Below are positions 1,215-61,504 of a DNA stretch of 64,000 nt, one piece after another. The DNA lies in assembly GCF_026213295.1 (NCBI RefSeq), contig NC_079412.1, forward strand, positions 2,365,313-2,429,312, given 5' to 3'. Below the pieces are notes generated by a model. That model ran no database searches and had not been told where the DNA came from. It saw nothing but the letters and a program-made list of their open reading frames with translations. Every line of letters begins with the position of its first letter. Within the stretch, counting starts at the first letter, position 1. Made by a program: the position numbers and the translations under genes. The stretch comes from Gadus chalcogrammus (lineage: Eukaryota > Chordata > Actinopteri > Gadiformes > Gadidae).

Positions 1215-1805
1215 ATTATTATTATTATTATTATTTCGTACGCCTTAGAAGTGGTACCACAGCCCAAACCGTAAATGGTGCACACGCGCCAATTGCATGA
1301 CTAGATCCAGAATCGGCACCGCTACTCAGATAACAAAATCCAGACACGCCGGTCCCTAGGTGGCGCTATACCAAGGAATACGCGTTTGGGGCTATAACTT
1401 CCACACCGAACCTCCCAGAGTCCAAAAACTTGTACACACAGATGCACTGGAGTCTGCTGCATCTTTTGGCCTAGGCCACGCCCATTTGCGTCAATGAATA
1501 TTTTTCGCTAAATCGCGAAAACCGCAAGACAGTTTTTTCGCTACTCCTCCCACATTTCTCGCCCGATCAACACCAAACTTTGCACACGACATCTTCAGAC
1601 GCACACGCAAAGAAATCCTAGAAACTTTTTTGATCCGACCTTCGACGACGAAACGGTAGCGTTTTGAATATTTGTTTATTAGCTAAATTAGACGTGAAAA
1701 GTCTAAAATCCGAAGAAATCCAGAATTATACATCGGATCGAGCCCAAATTTTACAGACATGTTGGTGCTAACCTTAATGACGTTCGATAAAAATATCGGA
1801 AAATT

Positions 1806-1824
1806 TCGCCATTAGGGGGCGCAA
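1806..1824 (+). promoter_or_regulatory. Second, weaker CTCF-like box (type example)
   Basis: TCGCCATTAGGGGGCGCAA matches the same consensus at 16 of 19 positions; the misses are positions 2, 7 and 18. A copy occurs in almost every unit, about 450 bp after the strong box and in the same orientation. L units add a third related box, TCGCCACAAGGGGGCGCAA (for example near 3855), also 16/19. Several L units have GGGGTCGC there instead, which breaks the core. Confidence 0.35.
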
Positions 1825-2011
1825 TAAACAAGGAAATTGTATATCTTCTACAAAATTTCGCCGCGAAAACGCTACACTGACTTCTCGCTACTCGTACCAC
1901 AGTCAAATCCTTTGTATCCACAGGTACAGGGTAGCGTTTTGAACACATGCTTCGCGTTGTGCCGGCGAAATGCACATTTCTTGTCGCGTTGTGCCGGCGA
2001 AATGCACACTT

Positions 2012-2044
2012 CTTGGACCCCTGCATAACTGCTTGCAGTTCTAG
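2012..2044 (+). mobile_element. Element 3' end: inverted motif, hairpin, CTAG (example)
   Basis: CTTGGACCCCT at 2012-2022 is the exact inverse of AGGGGTCCAAG, the start of each 47-bp monomer. It is followed by AACTGC-TT-GCAGTT (2027-2040), a 6-bp-arm hairpin, and then CTAG (2041-2044). The next bases are TT in nearly every unit. Known: Helentrons and their non-autonomous HINE relatives have a 5' terminal motif with its inverse subterminal at the 3' end, a 3' stem-loop, and a preference for TT targets. The match is structural; no transposase or Rep/helicase is present in the window. Confidence 0.5.
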
Positions 2045-2862
2045 TTATTCTTACCCCCCTAAAAGTGGGACCACAGCCCAAACCGTAAATGGTGCCGACA
2101 CGCGAATCACATGACTAGATCCAGATCTGTTCGGACTAAGCAGACGACAAAATCCAGACGCGCCGGTCACTAGGTGGCGCTATACCAAGGAATACGCGTT
2201 TGGGGCTATAACTCCCACACCGAACCTCCCACATTCAAAACCTTGTACACACAGATGCACTGGAGTCTGCTGCATCTTTTGGCATAGGCCACGCCCATTT
2301 GCGTCTATAAATTTTTTTCGCAAAATCGCGAAAACCGCAAAACTGTTTTTTCGCTACTCCTCCCACATTTCTTGACCAATCGACACAAAACTTTGCACAC
2401 GACATCTTCAGACGCACACGCAAAGGATTCATATACAGTTTTTTGATCCGACCTTCGACGACGAAACGATAGCATTTTGAATATTGGTATATTAGCTAAA
2501 TTAGACGTGGAAAATCAAAAATACAAAAAAATCCAAAATTAGACATCAGATCGAGCCCAAATTCTACACACATGTTGGTGCTAACCTTAAGGACGTTCGA
2601 TAAAAATTTCGGAAAATTCCGCCAGTAGGGGGCGCAATAAACGAGGAAATTGTATATCTTCTACAAAATTTCGCCGCGAAAACGCTACACTGACTTCTCG
2701 CTACTCCTACCACAGTCAAATCCTTTGTATCCACAGGTTCAGGGTAGCGTTTTCAACACATGCTTCGCGATGTGCCGGCGAAATGCACATTTCTTGTCGC
2801 GTTGTGCCGGCGAAATGCACACTTCTTGGACCCCTGCATAACTGCTTGCAGTTCTAGTTATT

Positions 2863-3089
2863 AGGGGTCCAAGCCAACAGGTTGGATCCCTATTGTTTTT
2901 GTAAGGATTTTTATTATTATTTTTATTATTAGGGGTCCAAGCCAACAGGTTGGATCCCTATTGTTTTTGTAAGGATTTTTCCTATTATTAGGGGTCCAAG
3001 CCAACAGGTTGGATCCCTATTGTTTTTGTAAGGATTATTATTAGGGGTCCAAGCCAACAGGTTGGATCCCTATTGTTTTTGTAAGGATT
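2863..3089 (+). repeat. Cluster of four 47-bp hairpin monomers
   Basis: Starts at 2863, 2931, 2990 and 3043. Spacers of T, ATT and CCT vary in length, while the 47-bp core is essentially invariant. The cluster sits between a CTAGTT unit end and the ATT spacer of the next unit. Confidence 0.9.
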
Positions 3090-6000
3090 ATTATTATTAT
3101 TCTTACCTCCCTAAAAGTGGGACCACAGCCCAAACCGTAAATGGTGCCGACACGCGAATTGCATGACTAGATCCAGATCTCTTCGGACTACGCAGACGAC
3201 AAAATCCAGACACGCCGAACACTAGGTGGCGCTATACCAAGGGAAAACGCGTTTGGGGCTATAACTCCCACACCGAACCTCCCACAGTCAAAAACTTGTA
3301 CCCACATATCCACTGGAGTCTGCTGCATCTTTTGGCATAGGCCACGCCCATTTGCGTCTGTAATTTTTTTTCGCAAAATCGCGAAAACCGTAAAACTGTT
3401 TTTTCGCTACTCCTCCCACATTTCTTGACCAATCAACACCAAACTTTGCACACGACATCTTCAGACAGACACGCAAAGAAATTTTTGAACACTTTTTTGA
3501 TTTGCCCTTTGACGACGAAACGGTAGCGTTTTGAATATTTGTTTATTAGCTACGTTTTACGTCGAAACGCGCAAAAATTAAAGAATACCAAAATTAAACA
3601 TCGGATCAAGTCCAAATTTTTGACACATGTCGATGCTACCCCTACTGGCGTTCAGTAAAATAATCGGAATATTTCGCCATAAGGGGGCGCAATAAACGAG
3701 GAAATTGTATATCTTCTAATTGGCCAAAGGAATGTTCTTCAAACTATAAGGGAACCATCAAGGGGCAAACCCGAGTCTATATAAAAAATATGGCCAAGAA
3801 TTATTAATGTGGGCGGGAGTTATTTGGCAAAGGAAAATTGTCTTTGGAAAATTTCGCCACAAGGGGGCGCAAATAAACGACGAAATAATACATCTCCTAA
3901 CTGGCCAATGGAATGTTCTGAAAATGCGTTTTGGGCTATAACTCCCACACCGAAGCTCCCACAGTCAAAACCTTTATATCCACAGATTCACTGGAGTCAG
4001 CTGCATCTTTTGGCACACGCTGTTTCTCAATTTTTGAACACATGCTTCTCGTTGTGCCGGCGAAATGCACACTTCTTGGACCCCTGCATAACTGCTTGCA
4101 GTTCTAGTTATTTTTATTAGGGGTCCAAGCCAACAGGTTGGATCCCTATTGTTTTTGTAAGGATTATTAGGGGTCCAAGCCAACAGGTTGGATCCCTATT
4201 GTTTTTGTAAGGATTTTTATTCTTACCCCCCTAAAAGTGGGACCACAGCCCAAACCGTAAATGGTGCCGACACGCGAATTGCATGACTAGATCCAGATCT
4301 GTTCGGACTAAGCAGACGACAAAATCCAGACGCGCCGGTCACTAGGTGGCGCTATACCAAGGAATACGCGTTTGGGGCTATAACTCCCACACCGAACCTC
4401 CCACAGTCAAAAACTTGTACCCACATATTCACTGGAGTCTGCTGCATCTTTTGGCCTAGGCCACGCCCATTTGCGTCTATGAATATTTTTCGCTAAATCG
4501 CGAAAACCGCAAAAATGTTTTTTCGCTACTCCTCCCACAATTCTCGACCAATCAACACCAAACTTTGCACACAGCATCTTCAGACGCACACGCAAAGGAA
4601 TCATCAACAGCTTTTTGATCCGACCTTCGACGACGAAACGGTAGCGTTTTGAATATTTATTTATTGGCTATGTTTTACGTCGAAACGCAAAAATTCAAAG
4701 AATACCAAAATTAGACATCGGATCAAGTCCAAATTTTAGACACATGTCGGTGCTACCCTTAATGGCGTTCATTAAAAAAATCGGAATATTTCGCCATTAG
4801 GGGGCGCAATAAACGAGGAAATTGTATATTTTCTAATTGGCCAAAGGAATGTTCTTCAAACTATAAGGGAACCATCAAGGGGCAAACCCGAGTCTATATA
4901 AAAAATATGGCCAAGAATTAATAATGTAGGCGGGAGTTATTTGGCAAAGGAAAATTGTCTTTGGAAAATTTCGCCAACAGGGCGGCGCCAAAAAACGACG
5001 AAATAATATATCTCCTATTTGGCCAATGGAATGTTCTGAAAACACGTTTTGGGCTTTAACTCCCACACCGAAGCTCCCACAGTCAAAAACGTTATATGCA
5101 CAGATTCACTGGAGTCAGTTGCATCTTTTGGCATACGCCGTTTCTCAAATTCCAACACATGCTTCGCGTTGTGCCGGCGAAATGCACACTTCTTGGACCC
5201 CTGCATAACTGCTTGCAGTTCTAGTTAGGGGTCCAAGCCAACAGGTTGGATCCCTATTGTTTTTGTAGCGATTCTTCTTATTCTTCCCGCGGTGAAAGTG
5301 GAACTGCAGCCCAAACCGTAAATGGTGCACACGCGCCAATTACATGACTAGATCCAGAATCGGCACCGCTACTCAGATAACAAAATCCAGACACGCCGGT
5401 CCCTAGGTGGCGCTATACCAAGGAATACGCGTTTGGGGCTATAACTCCCACACCGAACCTCCCACAGTCCAAAAACTTGTACACACAGATGCACTGGAGT
5501 CTGCTGCATCTTTTGGCCTAGGCCACGCCCATTTGCGTCTATGAATATTTTTCGCAAAATCGCGAAAACCGCTAAACTATTTTTTCGCTACTCCTCCCAC
5601 ATTTCTCGCCCAATCGACACCAAACTTTGCACACGGCATCTTCAGACGCACACGCAAAGAAATCATATACAGTTTTTTGATCCGACCTTCGACGACGAAA
5701 CTGTATCGTTTTGAATATTGGTTTATGAGCTAAATTAGACGTGGAATATCAAAAATCCAAAGAAATCCAAAATTAGACATCGGATCGAGTCCAAATTGTA
5801 CACACATGTTGGTGCTAACCTTAATGTCGTTCGATAAAAATTTCGGAAAATATCGCCATTAGGGGGCGCAATAAACGAGGAAATTGTATATCTTCTACAA
5901 AATTTCGCCGCGAAAACGCTACACTGACTTCTCGCTACTCCTACCACAGTCAAATACTTTGTATCCACAGGTTCAGGGTAGCGTTTTAAACACATGCTTT

Positions 6001-6215
6001 GCGTTGTGCCGGCGAAACGCACATTTCTTGTCGCGTTGTGCCGGCGAAATGCACACTTCTTGGACCCCTGCATAACTGCTTGCAGTTCTAGTTATTATTA
6101 TTATTCCCCCCTAGAAGTGGGTCCACAGCCCAAACCGTAAAAGGTGCCGACACGCCAATTGCATGACTAGATCCAGGGCCCTGAGTTCTAAGCAGACGAC
6201 AAAATCCAGACACGC

Positions 6216-7643
6216 CGGCCACTAGGTGGCGCTATACCAAGGAATACGCGTTTGGGGCTATAACTCCCACACCGAACCTCCCAGAGTCCAAAAACTTGTA
6301 CACACAGATGCACTGGAGTCTGCTGCATCTTTTGGGCTAGGCCACGCCCATTTGCGTCTATGAATATTTTTCGCTAATTCGCGAAAACCGCAAAACAGTT
6401 TTTTCCCTACTCCTCCCACATTTCTTGACCAATCAACACCAAACTTTGCACCCGACATCTTCAGACGCACACGCAAAGGAATCATCAACAGCTTTTTTAT
6501 CCGACCTTCGACGACGAAACGGTAGCGTTTTGAATATTTGTTTATTGGCTACGTTTTACGTCGAAACGCAAAAATTCAAAGAATACCAAAAGTAGACGTC
6601 GGATCAAGTCCAAATTTTAGACTCATGTCGGTGCTACCCTTATTGGCGTTCAATAAAGAATTCGGAATATTTCGCCATTAGGGGGCGCAATAAACGAGGA
6701 AATTGTATATCTTCTAATTGGCCAAAGGAATGTTCTTCAAACTATAAGGGAACCATCAAGGGGCAAACCCGAGTCTATATAAAAAATATGGCCAAGAATT
6801 AATAATGTAGGCGGGAGTTATTTGGCAAAGGAAAATTGTCTTTGGAAAATTTCGCCAACAGGGCGGCGCCAAAAAACGACGAAATAATATATCTCCTATT
6901 TGGCCAATGGAATGTTCTGAAAACGCGTTTTAGGCTACAACTCCCACACCAAAGCTCCCACAGTCAAAAACGTTATACGCACAGATTCACTGGAGTCAGC
7001 TGCATCTTTTGGCATAGGCCAGGCCCATTTGCGTCAGTATTTTCTTTATGCAAAATCGCAAAAACAGCTAAACTGCCTTTTCGCTACTCCTCCCACATTT
7101 CTTGCCCAATTGACACCAAACTTTGCACACGACATCTTCAGACGCACACTACAAGAAATCAGCAAAACTATTTTGATCCGACCATCGTTGACGAAACGGT
7201 AGCGTTTTGAATATATGTTTTGCGTTGCAAATCAGTAAAAACTATTTTGATCCAACCGTCGACGACTAAACGGTAGCGGAAAATGCGTTTGGGGCCGAAA
7301 CTCCCACACTGAACCTCTCACAGTCAAAACCTTTATATCCACAGGTTGTTCACGGTAGCGTTTTGAATACCTGCTTCGCGTTGTGCCGGCGAAATGCACA
7401 TTTCTTGTCGCGTTGTGCCGGCGAAATGCACACTTCTTGGACCCCTGCATAACTGCTTGCAGTTCTAGTTAGGGGTCCAAGCCAACAGGTTGGATCCCTA
7501 TTGTTTTTGTAAGGATTATTATTCCTATACTTGCCCCCCTAAAAGTGATACCACAGCCCAAACCGTAAATGGTGCCGACACGCGAATTGCATGACTAGAT
7601 CCAGATCTGTTCGGACTAAGCAGACGACAAAATCCAGACCTGC
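6216..7643 (+). repeat. XL unit (6216)
   Basis: This is one of four extra-long units. After the L insert it carries a second, diverged copy of the unit body (from about 7030: GTCAGTATTTTCTTTATGC, then the same CTCCTCCCACATTTCTTG, CTTTGCACACGACATC and GACGAAACGGTAGCG landmarks in order). It then has a third partial copy starting GCGTTTGGGGCCGAAACTCC near 7285. S and L units look like deletion derivatives of this form. Confidence 0.8.
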
Positions 7644-8277
7644 CGGCCACTAGGTGGCGCTATACCAAGGAATACGCGTTTGGGGCTATAACTCCCACAC
7701 CGAACCTCCCACATTCAAAACTTTATACACACAGATGCACTGGAGTCTGCTGCATCTTTTGGCCTAGGCCACGCCCATTTGCGTCTATGAATATTTTTCG
7801 CTAAATCGCGAAAACCGCAAAACTGTTTTTTCCCTACTCCTCCCACATTTCTTGACCAATCGACACCAAACTTTGCATACGACATCTTCCGACGCACACG
7901 CAAAGAATGCATGGAACACTTTTTTGATCAGACCTTCGACGACGAAACGGTAGCGTTTTGAATATTGGTTTATTAGCTAAATTAGACGTGGAATATCAAA
8001 AATCCAAAGAAATCCAAAATTAGACATCGGATCGAGTCCAAATTTGACACACATGTTGGTGCTAACCTTAATGTCGTTCGATAAAAAATTCGGAAAATTT
8101 CGCCATTAGGGGGCGCAATAAACGAGGAAATTGTATATCTTCTACAAAATTTCGCCGCGAAAACGCTTCACTGACTTCTCGCTACTCCTACCACAGTCAA
8201 ATCCTTTGTATCCACAGGTTCAGGGTAGCGTTTTGAACACATGCTTCGCTTTGTGCCGGCGAAACGCACATTTCTTG
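7469..8277 (+). repeat. 809-bp tandem duplication, copy 1
   Basis: It matches 8278-9086 with no difference seen. It begins at TTAGGGG of a 47-bp monomer and ends at CTTG, where the terminal hairpin is missing, so a monomer is joined directly to the previous 32-bp repeat. The identity points to very recent tandem duplication or an assembly duplication. Confidence 0.85.
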
Positions 8278-9086
8278 TTAGGGGTCCAAGCCAACAGGTT
8301 GGATCCCTATTGTTTTTGTAAGGATTATTATTCCTATACTTGCCCCCCTAAAAGTGATACCACAGCCCAAACCGTAAATGGTGCCGACACGCGAATTGCA
8401 TGACTAGATCCAGATCTGTTCGGACTAAGCAGACGACAAAATCCAGACCTGCCGGCCACTAGGTGGCGCTATACCAAGGAATACGCGTTTGGGGCTATAA
8501 CTCCCACACCGAACCTCCCACATTCAAAACTTTATACACACAGATGCACTGGAGTCTGCTGCATCTTTTGGCCTAGGCCACGCCCATTTGCGTCTATGAA
8601 TATTTTTCGCTAAATCGCGAAAACCGCAAAACTGTTTTTTCCCTACTCCTCCCACATTTCTTGACCAATCGACACCAAACTTTGCATACGACATCTTCCG
8701 ACGCACACGCAAAGAATGCATGGAACACTTTTTTGATCAGACCTTCGACGACGAAACGGTAGCGTTTTGAATATTGGTTTATTAGCTAAATTAGACGTGG
8801 AATATCAAAAATCCAAAGAAATCCAAAATTAGACATCGGATCGAGTCCAAATTTGACACACATGTTGGTGCTAACCTTAATGTCGTTCGATAAAAAATTC
8901 GGAAAATTTCGCCATTAGGGGGCGCAATAAACGAGGAAATTGTATATCTTCTACAAAATTTCGCCGCGAAAACGCTTCACTGACTTCTCGCTACTCCTAC
9001 CACAGTCAAATCCTTTGTATCCACAGGTTCAGGGTAGCGTTTTGAACACATGCTTCGCTTTGTGCCGGCGAAACGCACATTTCTTG
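8278..9086 (+). repeat. 809-bp tandem duplication, copy 2
   Basis: Second copy of 7469-8277. A further 47-bp monomer starts immediately after it (9089) and then another (9139), so the duplication appears to have continued into a partial third copy. Confidence 0.85.
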
Positions 9087-11143
9087 TTAGGGGTCCAAGC
9101 CAACAGGTTGGATCCCTATTGTTTTTGTAAGGATTTTTAGGGGTCCAAGCCAACAGGTTGGATCCCTATTGTTTTTGTAAGGATTATTATTATTTCGTAC
9201 GCCTTAGAAGTGGTACCACAGCCCAAACCGTAAATGGTGCACACGCGCCAATTGCATGACTAGATCCAGAATCGGCACCGCTACTCAGATAACAAAATCC
9301 AGACACGCCGGTCCCTAGGTGGCGCTATACCAAGGAATACGCGTTTGGGGCTATAACTTCCACACCGAACCTCCCAGAGTCCAAAAACTTGTACACACAG
9401 ATGCACTGGAGTCTGCTGCATCTTTTGGCCTAGGCCACGCCCATTTGCGTCTATGAATATTTTTCGCTAAATCGCGAAAACCGCAAAACTGTTTTATCGC
9501 TACTCCTCCCACATTTCTCGCCCGATCAACACCAAACTTTGCACACGACATCTTCAGACGCACACGCAAAGAAATCCTAGACACTTTTTTGATCCGACCT
9601 TCGACGACGAAACGGTAGCGTTTTGAATATTTGTTTATTAGCTAAATTAGACGTGAAAAGTCAAAAATCCGAAGAAATCCAGAATTATACATCGGATCGA
9701 GCCCAAATTTTACAGACATGTTGGTGCTAACCTTAATGACGTTCGATAAAAATATCGGAAAATTTCGCCATTAGGGGGCGCAATAAACAAGGAAATTGTA
9801 TATCTTCTACAAAATTTCGCCGCGAAAACGCTACACTGACTTCTCGCTACTCGTACCACAGTCAAATCCTTTGTATCCACAGGTACAGGGTAGCGTTTTG
9901 AACACATGCTTCGCGTTGTGCCGGCGAAATGCACATTTCTTGTCGCGTTGTGCCGGCGAAATGCACACTTCTTGGACCCCTGCATAACTGCTTGCAGTTC
10001 TAGTTCCTATTATTCTTACCCCCCTAAAAGTGGGACCACAGCCCAAACCGTAAATGGTGCCGACACGCGAATTGCATGACTAGATCCAGATCTGTTCGGA
10101 CTAAGCAGACGACAAAATCCAGACACGCCGGTCACTAGGTGGCGCTATACCAAGGAATACGCGTTTGGGGCTATAACTCCCACACCGAACCTCCCACATT
10201 CAAAACCTTGTACACACAGATGCACTGGAGTCTGCTGCATCTTTTGGCATAGGCCACGCCCATTTGCGTCTATGAATATTTTTCGCAAAATCGCGAAAAC
10301 CGCAAAACTGTTTTTTCCCTACTCCTCCCACATTTTTTGACCAATCAACACCAAACTTTGCACACGACATCTTCTGACGCACACGCAAAGAAATTATCGG
10401 ACAGTTTTTTGATCCGACCGTCGACGACGAAACGGTAGCGTTTTGAATATTGGTATATTAGCTAAATTAGACGTGGAAAATCAAAAATCCAGAAAAATCC
10501 AAAAGTAGACATCGGAACGAGTCCAAATTTTACATACATGTTGGTGCTAACCTTAATGTCGTTCAATAAAATTTTCGGAATATTTCGCCATTAGGGGGCG
10601 CAATAAACGAGGAAATTGTATATCTTCTTATTGGCCAAAGGAATGTTCTTCAAACTCAAAGGAAACCATCAAGGGGCAAACCTGAGTCTATATAAAAAAT
10701 ATGGCCAAGAATTATTAATGTGGGCGGGAGTTATTTGGCAAAGGAAAATTGTCTTTGGAAAATTTCGCCACAAGGGGTCGCAAATAAACGACGAAATAAT
10801 ATATCTCCTAACTGGGCAATGGAATGTTCTGAAAACGCGTTTTGGGCTATAACTCCCACACCGAAGCTCCCACAGTCAAAACCTTTATATCCACAGATTC
10901 ACTGGAGTCAGCTGCATCTTTTGGCACACGCTGTTTCTCAATTTTTGAACACATGCTTCGCGTTGTGCCGGCGAAATGCACACTTCTTGGACCCCTGCAT
11001 AACTGCTTGCAGTTCTAGTTTTTATTATACTTACCCCCCTAAAAGTGGGTCCACAGCCCAAACCGTAAATGGTGCCGACACGCCAATTGCATGACTAGAT
11101 CCAGATCTCTTCGGACTACGCAGAGGACCAAATCCAGACATGC

Positions 11144-12517
11144 CGGCCACTAGGTGGCGCTATACCAAGGAATACGCGTTTGGGGCTATAACTCCCACAC
11201 CGAACCTCCCAGAGTCCAAAAACTTGTACACACAGATGCACTGGAGTCTGCTGCATCTTTTGGGCTAGGCCACGCCCATTTGCGTCTATGAATATTTTTC
11301 GCTAATTCGCGAAAACCGCAAAACAGTTTTTTCCCTACTCCTCCCACATTTCTTGACCAATCAACACCAAACTTTGCACACGACATCTTCAGACGCACAC
11401 GCAAAGGAATCATCAACAGTTTTTTTATCCGACCTTCGACGACGAAACGGTAGCGTTTTGAATATTTGTTTATTGGCTACGTTTTACGTCGAAACGCAAA
11501 AATTGAAAGAATACCAAAAGTAGACGTTGGATCAAGTCCAAATTTTAGAAACATGTCGGTGCTACCTTTATTGGCGTTCAATAAAGAATTCGGAATATTT
11601 CGTCATTGGGGGGCGCAATAAACGAGGAAATTGTATATCTTCTAATTGGCCAAAGGAATGTTCTTCAAACTATAAGGGAACCATCAAGGGGCAAACCCGA
11701 GTCTATATAAAAAATATGGCCAAGAATTAATAATGTAGGCGGGAGTTATTTGGCAAAGGAAAATTGTCTTTGGAAAATTTCGCCAGCAGGGCGGCGCCAA
11801 AAAACGACGAAATAATATATCTCCTATTTGGCCAATGGAATGTTCTGAAAACGCGTTTTAGGCTATAACTCCCACACCGAAACTCCCACAGTCAAAAACG
11901 TTATACGCACAGATTCACTGGAGTCAGCTGCATCTTTTGGCATAGGCCAGGCCCATTTGCGTCAGTATTTTCTTTATGCAAAATCGCAAAAACAGCTAAA
12001 CTGCCTTTTCGCTACTCCTCCCACATTTCTTGCCCAATTGACACCAAACTTTGCACACGACATCTTCAGACGCACACTACAAGAAATCAGCAAAACTATT
12101 TTGATCCGACCATCGTTGACGAAACGGTAGCGTTTTGAATATATGTTTTGCGTTGCAAATCAGTAAAAACTATTTTGATCCAACCGTCGACGACTAAACG
12201 GTAGCGGAAAATGCGTTTGGGGCCGAAACTCCCACACTGAACCTCTCACAGTCAAAACCTTTATATCCACAGGTTGTTCACGGTAGCGTTTTGAATACTT
12301 GGTTCGCGTTGTGCCGGCGGAATTCACATTTATTGTCGCGTTGTGCCGGCGAAATGCACACTTCTTGGACCCCTGCATAACTGCTTGCAGTTCTAGTTAT
12401 TATTATTCCCCCCTAGAAGTGGGTCCACAGCCCAAACCGTAAATGGTGCCGACACGCCAATTGCATGACTAGATCCAGGGCCCTGAGTTCTAAGCAGACG
12501 ACAAAATCCAGACACGC
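11144..12517 (+). repeat. XL unit (11144)
   Basis: It has the same three-fold internal module structure as the unit at 6216. It carries no 47-bp monomer: CTAGTT is followed directly by an ATT spacer and CCCCCCTAGAAGTGG. The 32-bp repeat carries private changes (GGAATTCACATTTATTG near 12,320). Its first mid-unit box is altered to CGTCATTGGGGGGCGC near 11,600. Confidence 0.8.
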
Positions 12518-21688: not shown

Positions 21689-21691
21689 TTA

Positions 21692-46100: not shown

Positions 46101-47581
46101 GACCGTCGACGACGAAACGGTAGCGTTTTGAATATTGGTATATTAGCTAAATTAGACGTGGAAAATCAAAAATCCAGAAAAATCCAAAAGTAGACATCGG
46201 AACGAGTCCAAATTTTACAGACATGTTGGTGCTAACCTTAATGTCGTTCAATAAAATTTTTGGAATATTTCGCCATTAGGGGGCGCAATAAACGAGGAAA
46301 TTGTATATCTTCTTATTGGCCAAAGGAATGTTCTTCAAACTCAAAGGAAACCATCAAGGGGCAAACCTGAGTCTATATAAAAAATATGGCCAAGAATTAT
46401 TAATGTGGGCGGGAGTTATTTGGCAAAGGAAAATTGTCTTTGGAAAATTTCGCCACAAGGGGTCGCAAATAAACGACGAAATAATATATCTCCTAACTGG
46501 GCAATGGAATGTTCTGAAAACGCGTTTTGGGCTATAACTCCCACACCGAAGCTCCCACAGTCAAAACCTTTATATCCACAGATTCACTGGAGTCAGCTGC
46601 ATCTTTTGGCATACGCTGTTTCTCAATTTTTGAACACATGCTTCGCGTTGTGCCGGCGAAATGCACACTTCTTGGACCCCTGCATAACTGCTTGCAGTTC
46701 TAGTTAGGGGTCCAAGCCAACAGGTTGGATCCCTATTGTTTTTGTAAGGATTATTATTATTATTATTTCGTACGCCTTAGAAGTGGTACCACAGCCCAAA
46801 CCGTAAATGGTGCACACGCGCCAATTGCATGACTAGATCCAGAATCGGCACCGCTACTCAGATAACAAAATCCAGACACGCCGGTCCCTAGGTGGCGCTA
46901 TACCAAGGAATACGCGTTTGGGGCTATAACTTCCACACCGAACCTCCCAGAGTCCAAAAACTTGTACACACAGATGCACTGGAGTCTGCTGCATCTTTTG
47001 GCCTAGGCCACGCCCATTTGCGTCTATGAATATTTTTCGCTAAATCGCGAAAACCGCAAAACTGTTTTTTCGCTACTCCTCCCACATTTCTCTCCCGATC
47101 AACACCAAACTTTGCACACGACATCTTCAGACGCACACGCAAAGAAATCCTAGACACTTTTTTGATCCGACCTTCGACGACGAAACGGTAGCGTTTTGAA
47201 TATTTGTTTATTAGCTAAATTAGACGTGAAAAGTCAAGAATCCGAAGAAATCCAGAATTATACATCGGATTGAGCCCAAATTTTACAGACATGTTGGTGC
47301 TAACCTTAATGACGTTCGATAAAAATATCGGAAAATTTCGCCATTAGGGGGCGCAATAAACAAGGAAATTGTATATCTTCTACAAAATTTCGCCGCGAAA
47401 ACGCTACACTGACTTCTCGCTACTCGTACCACAGTCAAATCCTTTGTATCCACAGGTACAGGGTAGCGTTTTGAACACATGCTTCGCGTTGTGCCGGCGA
47501 AATGCACATTTCTTGTCGCGTTGTGCCGGCGAAATGCACACTTCTTGGACCCCTGCATAACTGCTTGCAGTTCTAGTTATT

Positions 47582-47805
47582 AGGGGTCCAAGCCAACAGG
47601 TTGGATCCCTATTGTTTTTGTAGTGTTTATTTTTATTAGGGGTCCAAGCCAACAGGTTGGATCCCTATTGTTTTTGTAAGGATTTTTTTTATTATTAGGG
47701 GTCCAAGCCAACAGGTTGGATCCCTATTGTTTTTGTAAGGATTTTTCTTATTAGGGGTCCAAGCCAACAGGTTGGATCCCTATTGTTTTTGTAAGGATTT
47801 TTCTT
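47582..47805 (+). repeat. Cluster of four 47-bp monomers
   Basis: Starts at 47,582, 47,638, 47,697 and 47,753. The first ends TGTAGTGTTTATT, a diverged tail; the others are standard. Confidence 0.9.
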
Positions 47806-48740
47806 ATTATTATTCTTACCCCCCTAAAAGTGGGCCCACACCCCAAACCGTAAAAGGTGCCGACACGCGAATTGCATGACTAGATCCAGATCTCTTCGGA
47901 CTACGCAGACGACCAAATCCAGACACGCCGGCCACTAGGTGGCGCTATACCAAGGAATACGCGTTTGGGGCTATAACTCCCACACCGAACCACCCAGAGT
48001 CCAATAACTTGTACACACAGATGCACTGGAGTCTGCTGCATCTTTTGGCCTAGGCCACGCCCATTTGCGTCTATGAATATTTTTCGCTAAATCGCGAAAA
48101 CCGCAAAACTGTATTTTCGCTACTCCTCCCACATTTCTTGACCAATCAACACCAAACTTTGCACACGGCATCTTCAGACGCACACGCAAAGAAATCTTAG
48201 ACAGTTTTTTGATCCGACCTTCGACGACGAAACGGTAGAGTTTTGAATATTTGTTTATTAGCAAAATTAGACGTGGAAAATTAAAAATCCAAAAAAATCC
48301 AAAATTAGACATCGGAACGAGTCCAAATTCTACAGACATGTTGGTGCTAACTTTAATGACGTTCCATAAATTTCGGACAATTTCGCCGTTAGGGGGCGCT
48401 ATAAACGAGGAAATTGTATATATTTTACAAAATTTCGCCGCGAAAACGCTACACTGACTTCTCGCTACTCCAACCACGGTCAAATCCTTTGTATCCACAG
48501 GTTCAGGGTAGCGTTTTGAACACATGCTTCACGTTGTGCCGGCGAAACGCACATTTCTTGTCGCGTTGTGCCGGCGAAATGCACATCTCTTGGACCCCTG
48601 CATAACTGCTTGCAGTTCTAGTTATTATTCCCCCCCTAGAAGTGGGCCCACAGCACAAACCGTAAATGGTGCAGACATGCCAAATGCATGACTAGATCAA
48701 GATCCGTGGCGACTACGCAGACGACAAAATCCAGACATGC

Positions 48741-50326
48741 CGGCCACTAGGTGGCGCTATACCAAGGAATACGCGTTTGGGGCTATAACTCCCACACCGA
48801 ACCTCCCACAGTCAAAAACGTTATACCCACAGATGCACTGGAGTCTGCTGCATCTTTTGGGCTAGGCCACGCCCATTTGCGTCTATGAATATTTTTCGCT
48901 AAATCGCGAAAACCGCAAAACAGTTTTTTCCCTACTCCTCCCACATTTCTTGACCAATCAACACCAAACTTTGCACACGACATCGTCAGATGCACACGCA
49001 AAGGAATCATCAACAGTTTTTTGATCCGACCTTCGACGACGAAACGGTAGCGTTTTGAATATTTGTTTATTGGCTACGTTTTACGTCGAAACGCAAAAAT
49101 TCAAAGAATACCAAAAGTAGACATCGGATCAAGTCAAAATTTTAGACACATGTCGGTGCTACCCTTATTGGCGTTCAATAAGAAATTCGGAATATTTCGC
49201 CATTAGGGGGCGCAATAAACGAGGAAATTGTATATCTTCTAATTGGCCAAAGGAATGTTCTTCAAACTATAAGGGAACCATCAAGGGGCAAACCCGAGTC
49301 TATATAAAAAATATGGCCAAGAATTAATAATGTAGGCGGGAGTTATTTGGCAAAGGAAAATTGTCTTTGGAAAATTTCGCCAACAGGGCGGCGCCAAAAA
49401 ACGACGAAATAATATATCTCCTATTTGGCCAATGGAATGTTCTGAAAACGCGTTTTAGGCTATAACTCCCACACCGAAGCTCCCACAGTCAAAAACGTTA
49501 TACGCACAGATTCACTGGAGTCAGCTGCATCCTTTGGCATAGGCCAGGCCCATTTGCGTCAGTATTTTCTTTATGCAAAATCGCAAAAACAGCTAAACTG
49601 CCTTTTCGCTACTCCTCCCACATTTCTTGCCCAATTGACACCAAACTTTGCACACGACATCTTCAGACGCACACTACAAGAAATCAGCAAAACTATTTTG
49701 ATCCGACCATCGTTGACGAAACGGTAGCGTTTTGAATATATGTTTTGCGTTGCAAATCAGTAAAAACTATTTTGATCCAACGACGACTAAACGGTAGCGG
49801 AAAATGCGTTTGGGGCCGAAACTCCCACACTGAACCTCTCACAGTCAAAACCTTTATATCCACAGGTTGTTCACGGTAGCGTTTTGAATACTTGGTTCGC
49901 GTTGTGCCGGCGAAATGCACATTTCTTGTCGCGTTGTGCCGGCGAAATGCACACTTCTTGGACCCCTGCATAACTGCTTGCAGTTCTAGTTAGGGGTCCA
50001 AGCCAACAGGTTGGATCCCTATTGTTTTTGTAAGGATTATTATTAGGGGTCCAAGCCAACAGGTTGGATCCCTATTGTTTTTGTAAGGATTTTTTTTATT
50101 AGGGGTCCAAGCCAACAGGTTGGATCCCTATTGTTTTTGTAAGGATTTTTCTTATTAGGGGTCCAAGCCAACAGGTTGGATCCCTATTGTTTTTGTAAGG
50201 ATTATTATTATTTCGTACGCCTTAGAAGTGGTACCACAGCCCAAACCGTAAATGGTGCACACGCGCCAATTGCATGACTAGATCCAGAATCGGCACCGCT
50301 ACTCAGATAACAAAATCCAGACACGC
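48741..50326 (+). repeat. XL unit (48741) with four monomers
   Basis: XL form and the longest unit. A short deletion changes TTTTGATCCAACCGTCGACGAC to a form lacking CGTC near 49,785. Four 47-bp monomers follow at 49,992, 50,045, 50,101 and 50,157, separated by ATT- or CTT-containing spacers. Confidence 0.8.
49992..50205 (+). repeat. Cluster of four 47-bp monomers
   Basis: Starts at 49,992, 50,045, 50,101 and 50,157, following the XL unit at 48741 and preceding the ATT spacer and TTTCGTACGCC start of the next unit. Confidence 0.9.
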
Positions 50327-53300
50327 CGGTCCCTAGGTGGCGCTATACCAAGGAATACGCGTTTGGGGCTATAACTTCCACACCGAACCTCCCAGAGTCC
50401 AAAAACTTGTACACACAGATGCACTGGAGTCTGCTGCATCTTTTGGCCCAGGCCACGCCCATTTGCGTCTATGAATATTTTTCGCTAAATCGCGAAAACC
50501 GCAAAACTGTTTTTTCCCTACTCCTCCCACATTTTTTGACCAATCGACACCAAACTTTGCACACGACATCTTCAGACGCACACGCAAAGGAATCATCAAC
50601 ACTTTTTTGATCCGACCTTCGACGACGAAACGGTAGCGTTTTGAATATTGGTTTATTAGCTAAATTAGACGTGAAAAGTCAAAAATCCGAAGAAATCCAG
50701 AATTATACATCGGATCGAGCCCAAATTTTAGAGACATGTTGGTGCTAACCTTACTGACGTTCGATAAAAATATCGGAAAATTTCGCCATTAGGGGGCGCA
50801 ATAAACAAGGAAATTGTATATCTTCTACAAAATTTCGCCGCGAAAACGCTACACTGACTTCTCGCTACTCATACCACAGTCAAATCCTTTGTATCCACAG
50901 GTACAGGGTAGCGTTTTGAACACATGCTTCAATGCTTCTTGTCGCGTTGTGCCGGCGAAATGCACACTTCTTGGACCCCTGCATAACTGCTTGCAGTTCT
51001 AGTTAGGGGTCCAAGCCAACAGGTTGGATCCCTATTGTTTTTGTAAGGATTTTTTTTATTATTATTCCCCCCTAGAAGTGGGCCCACAGCCCAAACCGTA
51101 AATGGTGCCGACATGCCAATTGCATGACTAGATCCAGTTCCCTGAGTTCTAGGCAGACGACAAAATCCAGACACGCCGGCCACTAGGTGGCGCTATACCA
51201 AGGAATACGCGTTTAGGGCTATAACTCCCACACCGAACCTCCCAGAGTCCAAAAACTTGTACACACAGATTCACTGGAGTCTGTTGCATCTTTTGGCCTA
51301 GGCCACGCCCATTTGCGTCTATGAATATTTTTCGCTAAATCGCGAAAACCGCAAAACTGTTTTTTCCCTACTCCTCCCACATTTTTTGACCAATCGACAC
51401 CAATCTTTGCACACGACATTTTATGACGCACGCGCAAAGAAATTATCGGACAGTTTTTTGATCCGACCTTCGACGACGAAACGGTAGCGTTTTGAATATT
51501 GGTTTATGAGCTAAATTAGACGTTGAATAACAAAAATCCCAAAAAATCCAAAATTCGACATCGGATCGAGTCCAAATTTTACACACATGTTGGTGCCAAC
51601 CTTAACGTCGTCCCTAAAAAAAATCGGAAGATTCCGCCTTTAGGGGGCGCAATAAACGAGGAAATTGTATGTCTTCTAATTGGCCAAAGGAATGTTCTTC
51701 AAACTCAAGTGAAACCATCAAGGGGCAAACCCGAGTCTATACAGAAAATATGGCTTATAATTATTAATGTGGGCGGGAGTTATTTGGCAAAGGAAAATTG
51801 TCTTTGGAAAATTTCGCCAACAGGGCGGCTCCAAAAAACGACGACATTGTCTATCTCCTATTTGGCCAATGGAATGTTCTGAAAACGCGTTTTAGGCTAT
51901 AACTCCCACACCGAAGCTCCCGCAGTCAAAACCTTTATATCCACATGTTGTTCACGGTAGCGTTTTGAATACTTGCTACGCGTTGTGCCGGCGAAATGCA
52001 CATTTCTTGTCGCGTTGTGCCGGCGAAATGCACACTTCTTGGACCCCTGCATAACTGCTTGCAGTTCTAGTTATTCTTACCCCCCTAAAAGTGGGCCCAC
52101 ACCCCAAACCGTAAAAGGTGCCGACACGCGAATTGCATGACTAGATCCAGATCTCTTCGGACTACGCAGACGACCAAATCCAGACACGCCGGCCACTAGG
52201 TGGCGCTATACCAAGGAATACGCGTTTGGGGCTATAACTCCCACACCGAACCACCCAGAGTCCAATAACTTGTACACACAGATGCACTGGAGTCTGCTGC
52301 ATCTTTTGGCCTAGGCCACGCCCATTTGCGTCTATGAATATTTTTCGCTAAATCGCGAAAACCGCAAAACTGTATTTTCGCTACTCCTCCCACATTTCTT
52401 GACCAATCAACACCAAACTTTGCACACGGCATCTTCAGACGCACACGCAAAGAAATCTTAGACAGTTTTTTGATCCGACCTTCGACGACGAAACGGTAGA
52501 GTTTTGAATATTTGTTTATTAGCAAAATTAGACGTGGAAAATTAAAAATCCAAAAAAATCCAAAATTAGACATCGGATCGAGTCCAAATTCTACACACAT
52601 GTTGGTGCTAACCTTAATGTCGTTCGATAAAAAATTCGGAAAATTTCGCCATTAGGGGGCGCAATAAACGAGGAAATTGTATATCTTCTACAAAATTTCG
52701 CCGCGAAAACGCTACACTGACTTCTCGCTACTCCTACCACAGTCAAATCCTTTGTATCCACAGGTTCAGGGTAGCGTTTTGAACACATGCTTCGCGTTGT
52801 GCCGGCGAAATGCACATTTCTTGTCGCGTTGTGCCGGCGAAATGCACACTTCTTGGACCCCTGCATAACTGCTTGCAGTTCTAGTTAGGGGTCCAAGCCA
52901 ACAGGTTGGATCCCTATTGTTTTTGTAGGGATTTTTCTTATTATTATTATTATTATACTTACCCCCCTAAAAGTGGTACCACAGCCCAAACCGTAAATGC
53001 TGCACACACGCCAATTACATGACTAGATCCAGATCTCTTCGGACTACGCAGACGACAAAATCCAGACATGCCGGCCACTAGGTGGCGCTATACCAAGGAA
53101 TACGCGTTTGGGGCTATAACTCCCACACCGAACCTCCCACAGTCCAAAAACTTGTACACACAGATGCACTGGAGTCTGCTGCATCTTTTGGCCTAGGCCA
53201 CGCCCATTTGCGTCTATGAATATTTTTCGCTAAATCGCGAAAACCGCAAAACTGTTTTTTCGCTACTCCTCGCACATTTCTTGACCAATCAACACCAAAC

Positions 53301-56300
53301 TTTGCACACGGCATCTTCAGACGCACACGCAAAGAAATCATATACAGTTTTTTGATCCGACCTTCGACGACGAAACGGTAGAGTTTTGAATATTATTTTA
53401 TTAGCTAAATTAGACGTGGAAAATTAAAAAAACAAAAAATTCCAAAATTAGATATCAGATCGTTTCCAAATGTTAGACACATGTTGGTGCTAACCTTAAT
53501 GACCTTGGATAAAAATTTCGGAAAATTTCGCCATTAGGGGGCGCAATAAACGAGGAAATTGTATATCTTCTACAAAAATTTCGCCGCGAAAACGCTACAC
53601 TGACTTCTCGCTACTCCACAGGTTCAGGGTAGCGTTTTGAACACATGCTTCGCGTTTTTCCGGCGAAATGCACATTTCTTGTCGCGTTGTGCCGGCGAAA
53701 TGCACACTTCTTGGACCCCTGCATAATTCTTATTATTCTTACCCCCCTAAAAGTGGGCCCACACCCCAAACCGTAAAAGGTGCCGACACGCGAATTGCAT
53801 GACTAGATCCAGATCTCTTCGGACTACGCAGACGACCAAATCCAGACACGCCGGCCACAAGGTGGCGCTATACCAAGGAATACGCGTTTGGGGCTATAAC
53901 TCCCACACCGAACCACCCAGAGTCCAATAACTTGTACACACAGATGCACTGGAGTCTGCTGCATCTTTTGGCCTAGGCCACGCCCATTTGCGTCTATGAA
54001 TATTTTTCGCTAAATCGCGAAAACCGCAAAACTGTATTTTCGCTACTCCTCCCACATTTCTTGACCAATCAACACCAAACTTTGCACACGGCATCTTCAG
54101 ACGCACACGCAAAGAAATCTTAGACAGTTTTTTGATCCGACCTTCGACGACGAAACGGTAGAGTTTTGAATATTTGTTTATTAGCAAAATTAGACGTGGA
54201 AAATTAAAAATCCAAAAAAATCCTAAATTAGACATCGGATCGAGTCCAAATTCTACACACATGTTGGTGCTAACCTTAATGTCGTTCGATAAAAAATTCG
54301 GAAAATTTCGCCATTAGGGGGCGCAATAAACGAGGAAATTGTATATCTTCTACAAAATTTCGCCGCGAAAACGCTACAATGACTTCTCGCTACTCCTACC
54401 ACAGTCAAATCCTTTGTATCCACAGGTTCAGGGTAGCGTTTTGAACACATGCTTCGCGTTGTGCCGGCGAAATGCACATTTCTTGTCGCGTTGTGCCGGC
54501 GAAATGCACACTTCTTGGACCCCTGCATAACTGCTTGCAGTTCTAGTTATTATTATTCCCCCCTAGAAGTGGGTCCACAGCCCAAACCGTAAATGGTGCC
54601 GACACGCCAATTGCATGACTAGATCCAGGGCCCTGAGTTCTAAGCAGACGACAAAATCCAGACATGCCGGCCACTAGGTGGCGCTATACCAAGGAATACG
54701 CGTTTGGGGCTATAACTCCCACACCGAACCTCCCACAGTCCAAAAACGTGTACACACAGATGCACTGGAGTCTGCTGCATCTTTTGGTCTAGGCCACGCC
54801 CATTTGCGTCAATGAATATTTTTCGCTAAATTGCGAAAACCGCAAAACTGTTTTTTCGCTACTCCTCGCACATTTCTTGACCAATCAACACCAAACTTTG
54901 CACACGGCATCTTCAGACGCACACGCAAAGAAATCATATACAGTTTTTTGATCCGACCTTCGACGACGAAACGATAGCATTTTGAATATTGGTATATTAG
55001 CTAAATTAGACGTGGAAAATCAAAAATCCAAAGAAAATCCAAAATTAGACATCGGATCGAGTCCAAATTCTACACACATGTTGGTGCTAACCTGAATGAC
55101 GTTCGATAAAAATTTCGGACAATTTCGCCGTTAGGGGGCGCAATAAACGAGGAAATTGTATATCTTCTACAAAATTTCGCCGCGATAACGCTACACTGAC
55201 TTCTCGCTACTCCTACCACAGTCAAATCCTTTGTATCCACAGGTTCAGGGTAGCGTTTTGAACACATGCTTCGCGTTGTACCGGCGAAATGCACATTTCT
55301 TGTCGCGTTGTGCCGGCGAAATGCACACTTCTTGGACCCCTGCATAACTGCTTGCAGTTCTAGTTAGGGGTCCAAGCCAACAGGTTGGATCCCTATTGTT
55401 TTTGTAAGGATTTTTCTTTTTATTAGGGGTCCAAGCCAACAGGTTGGATCCCTATTGTTTTTGTAAGGATTTTTATTATTATTAGGGGTCCAAGCCAACA
55501 GGTTGGATCCCTATTGTTTTTGTAAGGATTATTATTATTATTATTTCGTACGCCTTAGAAGTGGTACCACAGCCCAAACCGTAAATGGTGCACACGCGCC
55601 AATTACATGACTAGAACCAGGTCCGGCACCGCTACTCAGATAACAAAATCCAGACACGCCGGTCCCTAGGTGGCGCTATACCAAGGAATACGCGTTTGGG
55701 GCTATAACTCCCACACCGAACCTCCCAGAGTCCAAAAACTTGTACGCACAGATGCACTGGAGTCTGCTGCATCTTTTGGCCTAGGCCACGCCCATTTGCG
55801 TCCATGAATATTTTTCGCTAAATCGCAAAAACCGCAAAACAGTTTTTTCCCTACTCCTCCCACATTTCTTGACCAATCAACACAAAACTTTGCACACGAC
55901 ATCTTCAGACGCACACGCAAAGAAATCCTAGACACTTTTTTGATCCGACCTTCGACGACGAAACGGTAGCGTTTTGAATATTTGTTTATTAGCTACGTTT
56001 TACGTCGAAACGCAAAAAATTAAAAAAATACCAAAATTAGTCATCGGATCAAGTCCAAATTTTTGACACATGTTGATGCTACCCCTACTGGCGTTCAATA
56101 AAATAATCGGAATATTTCGCCATAAGGGGGCGCAATAAACGAGGAAATTGTATATCTTCGACAAAATCTCGCCGCGAAAACGCTACACTGACTTCCCGCT
56201 ACTCCTACCACAGTCAAATCCTTTGTATCCACAGGTTCAGGGTAGCGTTTTGAACACATGCTTCGCATTGTGCCGGCGAAATGCACATTTCTTGTCGCGT

Positions 56301-59300
56301 TGTGCCGGCGAAATGCACACTTCTTGGACCCCTGCATAACTGCTTGCAGTTCTAGTTATTATTATTATTATACTTCCTACCAAGAAAGTGGGAATACAGC
56401 CCATACCGTAAATGTTGCACACACACCAATTGCATGACTAGATCCAGGTCAGTGAAGACTATGCAGACGACAAAATCCAGACACGCCGGCCACTAGGTGG
56501 CGCTATACCAAGGAATACGCGTTTGGGGCTATAACTCCCACACCGAACCTCCCACAGTCCAAAAACTTGTACACACAGATGCACTGGAGTCTGCTGCATC
56601 TTTTGGCCTAGGCCACGCCCATTTGCGTCTATGAATATTTTTCGCTAAATCGCGAAAACCGCAAAACAGTTTTTTCCCTACTCCTCCCACATTTCTTGAC
56701 CAATCAACACCAAACTTTGCACACGACATCTTCAGACGCACACGCATAGAAATCTTAGACAGTTTTTTGATCCGACCTTCGACGACGAAACGGTAGAGTT
56801 TTGAATATTGGTTTATTAGCTAAATTAGACGTGGAAAATTAAAAATCCAAAAAAATCCAAAATTAGACATCGGATCGAGTCCAAATTCTACACACATGTT
56901 GGTGCTAACCTTAATGACGTTCGATAAAAATTTCGGAAAATTCCGCCATTATGGGGCGCAATAAACGAGGAAATTGTATATCTTCTACAAAATTTCGCCG
57001 CGAAAGCGCTACACTGACTTCTCGCTACTCCTACCACAGTCAAATCCTTTGTATCCACAGGTTCAGGGTAGCGTTTTCAACACATGCTTCGCGTTGTGCC
57101 GGCGAAATGCACATTTCTTGTCGCGTTGTGCCGGCGAAATGCAAACTTCTTGGACCCCTGCATAATTATTATTATACTTCCTACCAAGAAAGTGGGAATA
57201 CAGCCCATACCGTAAATGTTGCACACACGCCAATTGCATGACTAGATCCAGGTCAGTGAAGACTATGCAGACGACAAAATCCAGACACGCCGGCCACTAG
57301 GTGGCGCTATACCAAGGAATACGCGTTTGGGGCTATAACTCCCACACCGAACCTCCCACAGTCCAAAAACTTGTACACACAGATGCACTGGAGTCTGCTG
57401 CATCTTTTGGCCTAGGCCACGCCCATTTGCGTCCATGAATATTTTTCGCTAAATCGCGAAAACCGCAAAACTGTTTTTTCCCTACTCCTCCCACATTTCT
57501 TGACCAATCGACACCAAACTTTGCACACGACATCTTCAGACGCACACGCATAGAAATCTTAGACAGTTTTTTGATCCGACCTTCGACGACGAAACGGTAG
57601 AGTTTTGAATATTGGTTTATTAGCTAAATTAGACGTGGAAAATTAAAAATCCAAAAAAATCAAAAATTAGACATCGGATCGAGTCCAAATTCTACACACA
57701 TGTTGGTGCTAACCTTAATGACGTTCGATAAAAAATTCGGAAAATTCCGCCATTAGGGGGCGCAATAAACGAGGAAATTGTATATCTTCTACAAAATTTC
57801 GCCGCGAAAACGCTACACTGACTTTTCGCTACTCCTACCACAGTCAAATCCTTTGTATCCACAGGTTCAGGGTAGCGTTTTCAACACATGCTTCGCGTTG
57901 TGCCGGCGAAATGCACATTTCTTGTCGCGTTGTGCCGGCGAAATGCACACTTCTTGTTATACTTCCCGCCTTGAAAGTGGGTCCACAGCCCAAACCGTAA
58001 ATGGTGCACACGCGCCAATTACATGACTAGAACCAGGTCCGGCACCGCTACTCAGATAACCAAATCCAGACATGCCGGCCACTAGGTGGCGCTATACCAA
58101 GGAGAAACACGTTTGGGGCTATAACTCCCACACCGAACCTCCTAGAGTCCAAAAACTTGTACACACAGATGCACTGGAGTCTGCTGCATCTTTTGGCCTA
58201 GGCCCCGCCCATTTGCGTCTATGAATATTTTTCGCTAAATCGCGAAAACCGCAAAACTGTTTTTTCGCTACTCCTCCCACATTTTTCGCCCGATCAACAC
58301 CAAACTTTGCACACGACATCGTCAGACGCACACAAAAAATAAATTTCGAACACTTTTTTGATCCGACCTTCGACAACGAATCGGTAGCGCTTGGAATATT
58401 GGTATATTAGCTAAATTAGACGTGGAAAATTAAAAATCCAAAGAATCCAAAATTAGACATTGGATCGAGTCCAAATTCTACACACATGTCAGTGCTAACC
58501 TTAATGACGTTGGATAAAAATTTCGGAAAATTCCGCCATTAGGGGGCGCAATAAACGAGGAAATTGTATATCTTCGACAAAATTTCGCCGCAAAAACGCT
58601 ACACTGACTTCTCGCTACTCCTACCACAGTCAAATCCTTTGTATCCACAGGTTCAGGGTAGCGTTTTCAACACATGCTTCGCGATGTGCCGGCGAAATGC
58701 ACATTTCTTGTCGCGTTGTGCCGGCGAAATGCACACTTCTTGGACCCCTGCATAACTGCTTGCAGTTCTAGTTAGGGGTCCAAGCCAACAGGTTGGATCC
58801 CTATTGTTTTTGTAAGGATTTTTCTTCCTATTATTATTATTTTTATACTTACCCCCCTAAAAGTGGTACCACAGCCCAAACCGTAAATGCTGCACACACG
58901 CCAATTACATGACTAGATCCAGATCTCTTCGGACTACGCAGACGACAAAATCCAGACATGCTGGCCACTAGGTGGCGCTATACCAAGGAATACGCGTTTG
59001 GGGCTATAACTCCCACACCGAACCTCCCAGAGTCCAAAAACTTGTACACACAGATGCACTGGAGTCTGCTGCATCTTTTGGCATAGGCCACGCCCATTTG
59101 CGTCTATAATTTTTTTTCGCAAAAACGCGAAAACCGCAAAACTGTTTTTTCGCTACTCCTCCCACATTTCTTGACCAATCGACACAAAACTTTGCACACG
59201 GCATCGTCAGACGCACGCGCAAAGAAATCATATATACTTTTTTGATCCGACCTTCGACGACGAAACGGTAGCGTTTTGAATATTGGTTTATTAGCTACGT

Positions 59301-61473: not shown

Positions 61474-61504
61474 CGTCTGCGGGCTGCAGTCAGGGGTACT
61501 TGAG

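What the first reader, a model, noticed from the sequence alone, without database searches (positions are those of the whole stretch)
1350..58980. Macrosatellite carrying 62 co-oriented CTCF-consensus boxes
Seen: one 19-bp box per unit, always on the same strand, at an average of about 945 bp. Thirty-one fit YGRCCASYAGRKGGCRSYR fully, 17 miss one position and 14 miss two. Known: CTCF orientation sets loop direction, and the mammalian macrosatellite DXZ4 is a tandem CTCF array with architectural roles. Inference: this array could be a strong one-way extrusion barrier or boundary whose strength varies with copy number.
Basis: partly seen in the sequence, partly recalled or inferred. Interest (0 to 1): 0.9.

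Follow-up and report, generated by a model that had tools for sequence, protein, structure and literature searches.

The report
Fish-like satellite packed with CTCF-like motifs
A long tandem repeat, probably from a fish, carries about 130 sequences that look like good docking sites for the genome-folding protein CTCF, all pointing the same way, but nothing in the sequence shows yet that CTCF uses them or that selection keeps them.

Summary
It is also incomplete. A second, paralogous box lies about 456 bp after the first in 58 of 62 units, and some units hold a third. A CTCF matrix (counts recalled from memory) gives 130 plus-strand and 0 minus-strand matches at p<1e-5 in the array: 62 A, 59 B, 9 C. 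Shuffled units and column-permuted matrices do not reproduce this. Co-orientation follows from head-to-tail repetition and is not separate evidence. The array runs off the left edge and ends near 59,775. It grows by multi-unit duplication and belongs to a diverse, apparently high-copy family, probably teleost. Against a selected role: boxes are no more conserved than the rest of the unit (31st-33rd percentile), variation ignores matrix information content, and 12 of 21 C boxes found are broken. For a bindable state: CpG observed/expected is 1.15, with only about twofold excess CpG decay. Most likely these are CTCF-grade sites amplified as passengers, able to stall cohesin from the right if unmethylated. 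A DXZ4-like selected boundary is possible but unsupported. No occupancy or Hi-C data were available.

The parts
1..59775 (+). Satellite array as seen in the window: head-to-tail units of 769-1586 bp (consensus 868 bp), open at the left edge, interrupted by a piece of flank at about 785-1111
   Evidence: position 1 begins with the sequence that follows an A box elsewhere; right end judged by eye
1350..58980 (+). 62 A boxes (19 bp), variants of CGGCCACTAGGTGGCGCTA
   Evidence: count; scores 15.6-26.2 bits; 62 of 62 above p<1e-5
428..58551 (+). 59 B boxes (TCGCCATTAGGGGGCGCAA type): 58 of the 62 units, 454-458 bp after the A box, plus one at 428 in the unit cut by the window edge
   Evidence: in the 4 units starting at 11144, 36674, 56487 and 58962 the B box falls below threshold
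3854..46468 (+). 9 C boxes that match CTCF (3854, 10765, 18968, 23463, 29658, 31683, 37308, 40957, 46450), 634-638 bp after an A box
608..59616 (+). 12 degenerate C boxes (TCGCCAACAGGGCGGC type) that do not pass the matrix threshold
   Evidence: 12 positions, pattern with up to 2 substitutions; none is among the hits; the commonest form scores -3.8 bits
21625..27118 (+). Multi-unit block repeated at 29851-35349 (97.4% identity); two further blocks: 19161-21688 with 25443-27970 (99.96%) and 18158-20031 with 45636-47516 (97.3%)
   Evidence: only matches over 1500 bp at 97% or more were listed
1113..58801 (+). 62 exact copies of a 27-bp imperfect palindrome (GGGGTCCAAGCCAACAGGTTGGATCCC) in 50-60 bp sub-repeats; none in 28 of 62 units, 1 to 4 in the other 34, 2 before the first A box
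   Evidence: folds as a hairpin, z -3.46
785..1111 (+). Piece of the right flank embedded in the array (left limit judged by eye); 400-1111 matches 59,390-60,101 at 98.5%
61001..61019 (+). Lone CTCF-like site in the right flank, same strand (15.1 bits, p 2.9e-6)
62832..63152 (-). Flank reading frame resembling an unnamed Gadus morhua protein (78% over 77% of the query): the only named clue to the organism
   Evidence: weak Pfam match UBN_AB, E 0.0066, below its cut-off

Best explanation
This is a satellite array, probably of a teleost fish, whose ancestral sub-repeat contained a high-grade CTCF core site. Duplication inside the unit and then of the unit, by unequal exchange and multi-unit block duplication, produced 130 same-strand sites in about 60 kb (the sites and duplications are shown; the exchange mechanism is inferred). 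The A boxes, and more weakly the B and C boxes, are probably bound by CTCF in cells where the array is unmethylated and open (inferred). Bound CTCF on + strand motifs would stall cohesin arriving from the right, making the array a left-hand loop anchor facing the right flank (inferred from the orientation rule). This capacity is most likely a by-product of satellite amplification, not the reason the array exists.
For: 62 of 62 A boxes, 58 of 62 units' B boxes (plus one in the cut unit) and 9 of 21 C boxes found exceed p<1e-5; 51 sites exceed p<1e-7. None of 5000 shuffled units and none of 5000 column-permuted matrices reach the best score. A, B and C align as paralogous sub-repeats. Block duplications. 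CpG observed/expected is 1.15 in the array against 0.79 in the right flank, and the CpG/non-CpG transition ratio is 1.76-2.47 across four identity bands, so CpGs have not decayed as I recall for heavily methylated vertebrate DNA. Passenger status. In zebrafish the CTCF motif is the most enriched motif at CTCF-bound sites and is preferentially convergent around TAD boundaries (PMC8438036, passages).
Against: No occupancy, accessibility or methylation data. The 14 weakest A boxes score 15.6 bits. An extra upstream motif of some CTCF sites (TGCANTNCC, recalled) is absent from the array (0 matches on the + strand). Satellites are often packed in heterochromatin (general knowledge). The species rests on one flank protein. 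The transition/transversion ratio of 0.68-0.80 is odd and weakens the CpG inference.
Confidence: 0.5

Rival explanations
1. Silent satellite: the boxes match CTCF but the array is packed in heterochromatin and CTCF does not bind it to any useful extent; the motif is only sequence shared with the ancestral repeat.
For: Boxes are no better conserved than the unit; variation does not track matrix information; 12 of 21 C boxes found are broken; relatives look high-copy and diverse, like ordinary repeats.
Against: High CpG observed/expected (1.15) and weak excess CpG decay argue against long-term heavy germline methylation; all 62 A boxes keep a score above p<1e-5.
Confidence: 0.32
2. Selected architectural element that works like mammalian DXZ4: a copy-number-dependent, one-way extrusion barrier or long-range contact platform for a chromosome domain.
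For: Dense, co-oriented CTCF-grade sites. Inverting Dxz4 redirects its contacts, so orientation of a tandem CTCF bank matters in mammals (PMC5899087, passages).
Against: [quoted passage not shown] The family seems to exist in many diverged copies. Co-orientation is automatic in a direct repeat.
Confidence: 0.13
3. The box is a motif of something else, such as another zinc-finger protein or the machinery that spreads this repeat, and the CTCF match is a look-alike.
For: The box sits in units that also carry a palindrome and 32-bp repeats; a repeat family can carry its own protein-binding boxes (inference). Other transcription-factor matrices were not tested.
Against: The 19-column match is at p of about 2e-10 for the commonest box and depends on the column order. 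None of the 12 ORFs of 110 aa or more (all in the array) has a Pfam match at E up to 1; transposon ends were not searched for.
Confidence: 0.05

Closest known systems
DXZ4/Dxz4 macrosatellite (mammalian X chromosome)
   Same: Tandem array with CTCF motifs in tandem orientation (an estimated 10-100 copies in human, 14 in mouse; PMC5899087, passages)
   Different: Unit consensus is 868 bp and the array 44% GC, against about 3 kb and 62% GC in human; two or three motif copies per unit; CTCF box not preferentially conserved within the array; no X linkage shown; binding unproven here
Firre/FIRRE local repeat R0
   Same: Repeated DNA element linked with CTCF across many copies
   Different: R0 binds CTCF without a canonical motif (PMC4820808, passages), while this array has near-ideal motifs but no binding data; Firre has a similar number of CTCF sites in either orientation (PMC5899087, passages)
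Dispersed repeats that carry CTCF motifs in rodents (B2 SINE name recalled; PMC7520972, search listing only)
   Same: CTCF sites spread by repeat amplification
   Different: Here the repeats lie in one long head-to-tail array; relatives are known only as short unnamed contigs
Long satellite arrays with block duplications (general kind, from general knowledge)
   Same: Head-to-tail units, block duplications, internal sub-repeats
   Different: The density of CTCF-grade boxes

Membership tests
Canonical CTCF core site | Match to the 19-bp CTCF matrix well above chance | tested here: met
   130 array sites at p<1e-5, all on +; controls by shuffling and matrix permutation. Matrix counts recalled, not fetched
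Canonical CTCF core site | Upstream TGCANTNCC-like motif found at a subset of sites (optional feature, recalled) | tested here: not met
   0 matches on the + strand of 1-59775
Canonical CTCF core site | CTCF occupancy in cells | not testable with these tools
   No ChIP or CUT&RUN data for this genome
DXZ4 family | Tandem array with co-oriented CTCF motifs in the units | tested here: met
   (motif level only)
DXZ4 family | About 3-kb, GC-rich (about 62%) unit as in human | tested here: not met
   Consensus 868 bp; array 44% GC. Mouse Dxz4 itself departs from this, with 3.8-5.7 kb units and 53.4% GC (PMC3491370, passages), so this alone does not decide
DXZ4 family | CTCF site more conserved than the rest of the unit | tested here: not met
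   Box A at the 33rd and box B at the 31st percentile of diversity of 19-bp windows: lower than the median but not exceptional; this is within-array, not between-species as for DXZ4
DXZ4 family | X-linked, near PLS3, CTCF-bound on the inactive X | not testable with these tools
   Own genome could not be searched
Satellite / macrosatellite | Head-to-tail units far longer than 100 bp repeated many times | tested here: met
   62 units; the 61 box-to-box spacings are 769-1586 bp
Satellite / macrosatellite | Restricted to one or a few loci (macrosatellite sense) | tested here: inconclusive
   80 related translated fragments, 1 of 80 at 95% or more identity to the window, suggest more copies elsewhere or in other species; genome not available

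The most novel reading that the evidence does not exclude
A non-mammalian, probably teleost, functional counterpart of DXZ4 evolved independently: a satellite with two to three co-oriented CTCF sites per unit (about 2.2 per kb over the roughly 60 kb in view) that acts as an extreme one-way cohesin barrier and sets a chromosome-scale domain edge, with strength tuned by copy number.
Probability: 0.12. Interest if true: 0.88.

Novelty: new variant of a known kind. Interest (0 to 1): 0.55.

Why it matters
The natural tandem arrays of co-oriented CTCF sites that I know of, and that my searches listed, are on the mammalian X. An array with 130 such motifs in a probable fish, carrying graded A-box variants (25.9, 21.1 and 15.6 bits) in near-identical repeated contexts, would be a natural dose-response test of how site number and strength set cohesin stalling, and of whether satellite growth alone can create chromatin boundaries. 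Even if CTCF does not bind, it would show that near-ideal motifs in bulk are not enough.

Tried and rejected
Rejected ideas. RNA-gene cluster: no Rfam match at gathering thresholds, no tRNA or tmRNA. Protein-coding array: the 12 ORFs of 110 aa or more (longest 184 aa) have no Pfam match at E up to 1; five flank frames of the 54 listed were also scanned and none passes its curated cut-off, though two have weak matches (CRIM E 0.23; UBN_AB E 0.0066). Inverted architecture: no inverted self-match at 97% or more, and none at E up to 1e-5 in a looser minus-strand search. CpG protection specific to the boxes: the four box CpGs are kept at 0.98-1.00, but many other CpGs of the unit are kept as well, so it was not used as evidence. 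My first CpG ratio of 1.10 came from a looser comparison of 31 pairs; the cleaner one with isolated differences gives 1.76-2.47, and I report the latter.

Led nowhere. Repeat letters searched in papers (34 papers, 20 listed, all for one short 10-mer only; none opened). Viral and genome contigs (no related locus; the tool warns that the window's own records may be left out). A solved-structure search for one flank frame (none at E up to 1). Literature: by title and abstract opening, none of the papers listed announces a CTCF-motif satellite in a fish: 25 listed of 86, 20 of 52, 5 of 5, 6 of 6, 12 of 519, 12 of 168, 12 of 22, 10 of 4,287, 12 of 90. This covers open-licence PMC papers only. The cod tandem-repeat paper (PMC5241972; abstract and passages) analysed genome-wide units of 1-50 bp in the passages seen and so does not speak to this unit size.

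Full report
What is in the sequence. The window is mostly a direct-repeat array. Mean spacing is 944.5 bp, range 769-1586. The array is already under way at position 1, which carries the sequence that follows an A box elsewhere, and ends near 59,775 (judged by eye). Its full length is therefore unknown.

A second CTCF-like box (B) lies 454-458 bp after the first in 58 of 62 units, and 9 units carry a third (C) 634-638 bp after it. Of these, 130 lie in the array (62 A, 59 B, 9 C) and one in the right flank at 61,001. The commonest A box (30 copies) scores 25.9 of a possible 27.9 bits (p about 2e-10); 13 A boxes score 21.1 and 14 score 15.6. In 4 of 62 units B falls below threshold. I found 21 C boxes, of which 12 are degenerate.

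Is it chance? None of 5000 dinucleotide-shuffled consensus units reached the observed score; 92 of 5000 had any hit at p<1e-5 and 3 had two or more. Thirty whole-window shuffles averaged 0.70 (+) and 0.50 (-) hits. None of 5000 column-permuted matrices matched the unit as well, though 7 reached the B-box level of 17.9 bits. Of 1000 permuted matrices, 3 gave 60 or more array hits and none gave 130. The match is therefore specific to CTCF's column order. The copies are not independent, though: they are copies of a few paralogous boxes, and their common strand follows from head-to-tail repetition.

How it arose. The A, B and C boxes sit in recognisably paralogous sub-repeats (alignment). Large blocks have been duplicated: 21,625-27,118 matches 29,851-35,349 at 97.4%, 19,161-21,688 matches 25,443-27,970 at 99.96%, and 18,158-20,031 matches 45,636-47,516 at 97.3%. 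Mean unit identity does not fall with distance along the array (0.89-0.91 at lags 1-19, highest at lag 7), which fits exchange over long distances. A piece of the right flank is embedded at about 785-1111, as expected if an array edge was duplicated inward. Assembly error cannot be excluded for the near-identical blocks.

Is the box under selection? Three tests show no sign of it. Diversity in box A lies at the 33rd and in box B at the 31st percentile of all 19-bp windows of the unit. Variation across box positions does not follow matrix information content (Spearman -0.11 for A, 0.03 for B), and A's two most variable positions, 4 and 6, carry above-average information in the matrix. Twelve of the 21 C boxes found lost the match while their left flank (12 of 12) and right flank (11 of 12) stayed alignable. 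These are within-array tests, and gene conversion could hide weak selection.

Could CTCF bind it? CpG observed/expected is 1.15 in the array against 0.79 in the right flank. Among isolated differences between paired units the CpG/non-CpG transition ratio is 1.98, 2.47, 1.76 and 2.24 in four identity bands (18, 24, 25 and 19 pairs), with bootstrap intervals together spanning 1.28-3.37. That is a weak excess, below what I recall for heavily methylated vertebrate DNA, so long-term heavy germline methylation looks unlikely. The low transition/transversion ratio (0.68-0.80) is odd and makes me cautious. In zebrafish the CTCF motif is the most enriched motif at CTCF-bound sites and is preferentially convergent around TAD boundaries (PMC8438036, passages). 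The little skate paper describes a CTCF orientation code there that parallels bony fishes and tetrapods (PMC10115646, passages).

Which organism? A flank frame (62,832-63,152, - strand) matches an unnamed Gadus morhua 'NCC' protein at 78% identity over 77% of its length; two of the six hits carry that name and the rest are unnamed. A teleost is likely; cod itself is not shown. The own-genome search did not complete (eight attempts). Translated fragments of the repeat have 72 relatives among 74 candidates in one search and 14 of 70 in another, all on contigs of at most 2,159 bases with no organism given. Of the 80 distinct proteins, 1 matches the window at 95% or more, 54 at 80-95% and 25 below 80%. 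The family is thus diverse and seemingly high-copy, unlike a single-locus macrosatellite; whether the copies are in the same species is unknown. Where fragments reach the boxes, a translated box is still recognisable: an APP motif in 13 of 80, 7 of them APPNGE as at box B (that the other 6 are A boxes is inference). Those were found by similarity, so this is not a conservation test.

Mechanism. Shown: CTCF-grade motifs, one strand, paralogous sub-repeats, block duplication. Inferred: binding where unmethylated; stalling of cohesin that arrives from the right, because + strand motifs anchor loops extending to the right (orientation rule, recalled; the dependence of Dxz4 contacts on orientation is from PMC5899087, passages). 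Sites in a clustered boundary cooperate, but the character of a single site can outweigh number and orientation (PMC9279147, passages), so 130 motifs need not mean an exceptional barrier.

Compared with what is known. DXZ4 is the nearest in layout, but it is X-linked and GC-rich with a 3-kb unit in human, and beyond New World monkeys only its promoter and CTCF site stay conserved (PMC3218863, PMC3491370, passages). This array did not meet the conservation test (within-array form) and is not filed as DXZ4; it may still work like it.

Noticed in passing
window 1113-58801: 62 exact copies of a 27-bp imperfect palindrome in 50-60 bp sub-repeats: none in 28 of 62 units, up to four in others (for example 39,990-40,204 and 49,990-50,212); as single-stranded DNA only 1 of 200 shuffles folds as well.
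   Followed up: partly
window 1952-58742: A 32-bp element (TCGCGTTGTGCCGGCGAAATGCACACTTCTTG) occurs as a tandem pair at 43 places in the tandem-repeat listing; 89 copies of its core were counted.
   Followed up: no
window 1270-59775 (units of the array): Isolated differences between units show a transition/transversion ratio of only 0.68-0.80 in every identity band, near the random value of 0.5, which is unusual for ordinary mutation.
   Followed up: partly
window 59962-60231 (and truncated copy within 785-1111): A flank frame of 89 aa looks protein-like by eye but has no significant Pfam (best E 0.23) or PDB match; its inner copy is cut off by the satellite.
   Followed up: partly
window 61504-62058: A 250-bp duplication (92%) in the right flank, with GCATCCTGGGATATTTG-like sequence, perhaps a transposon fragment.
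   Followed up: no
protein P0069 (JGI contig of 913 bp): Its first part looks to me like a phage tail protein and its end is the translated repeat: probably a chimeric contig.
   Followed up: no
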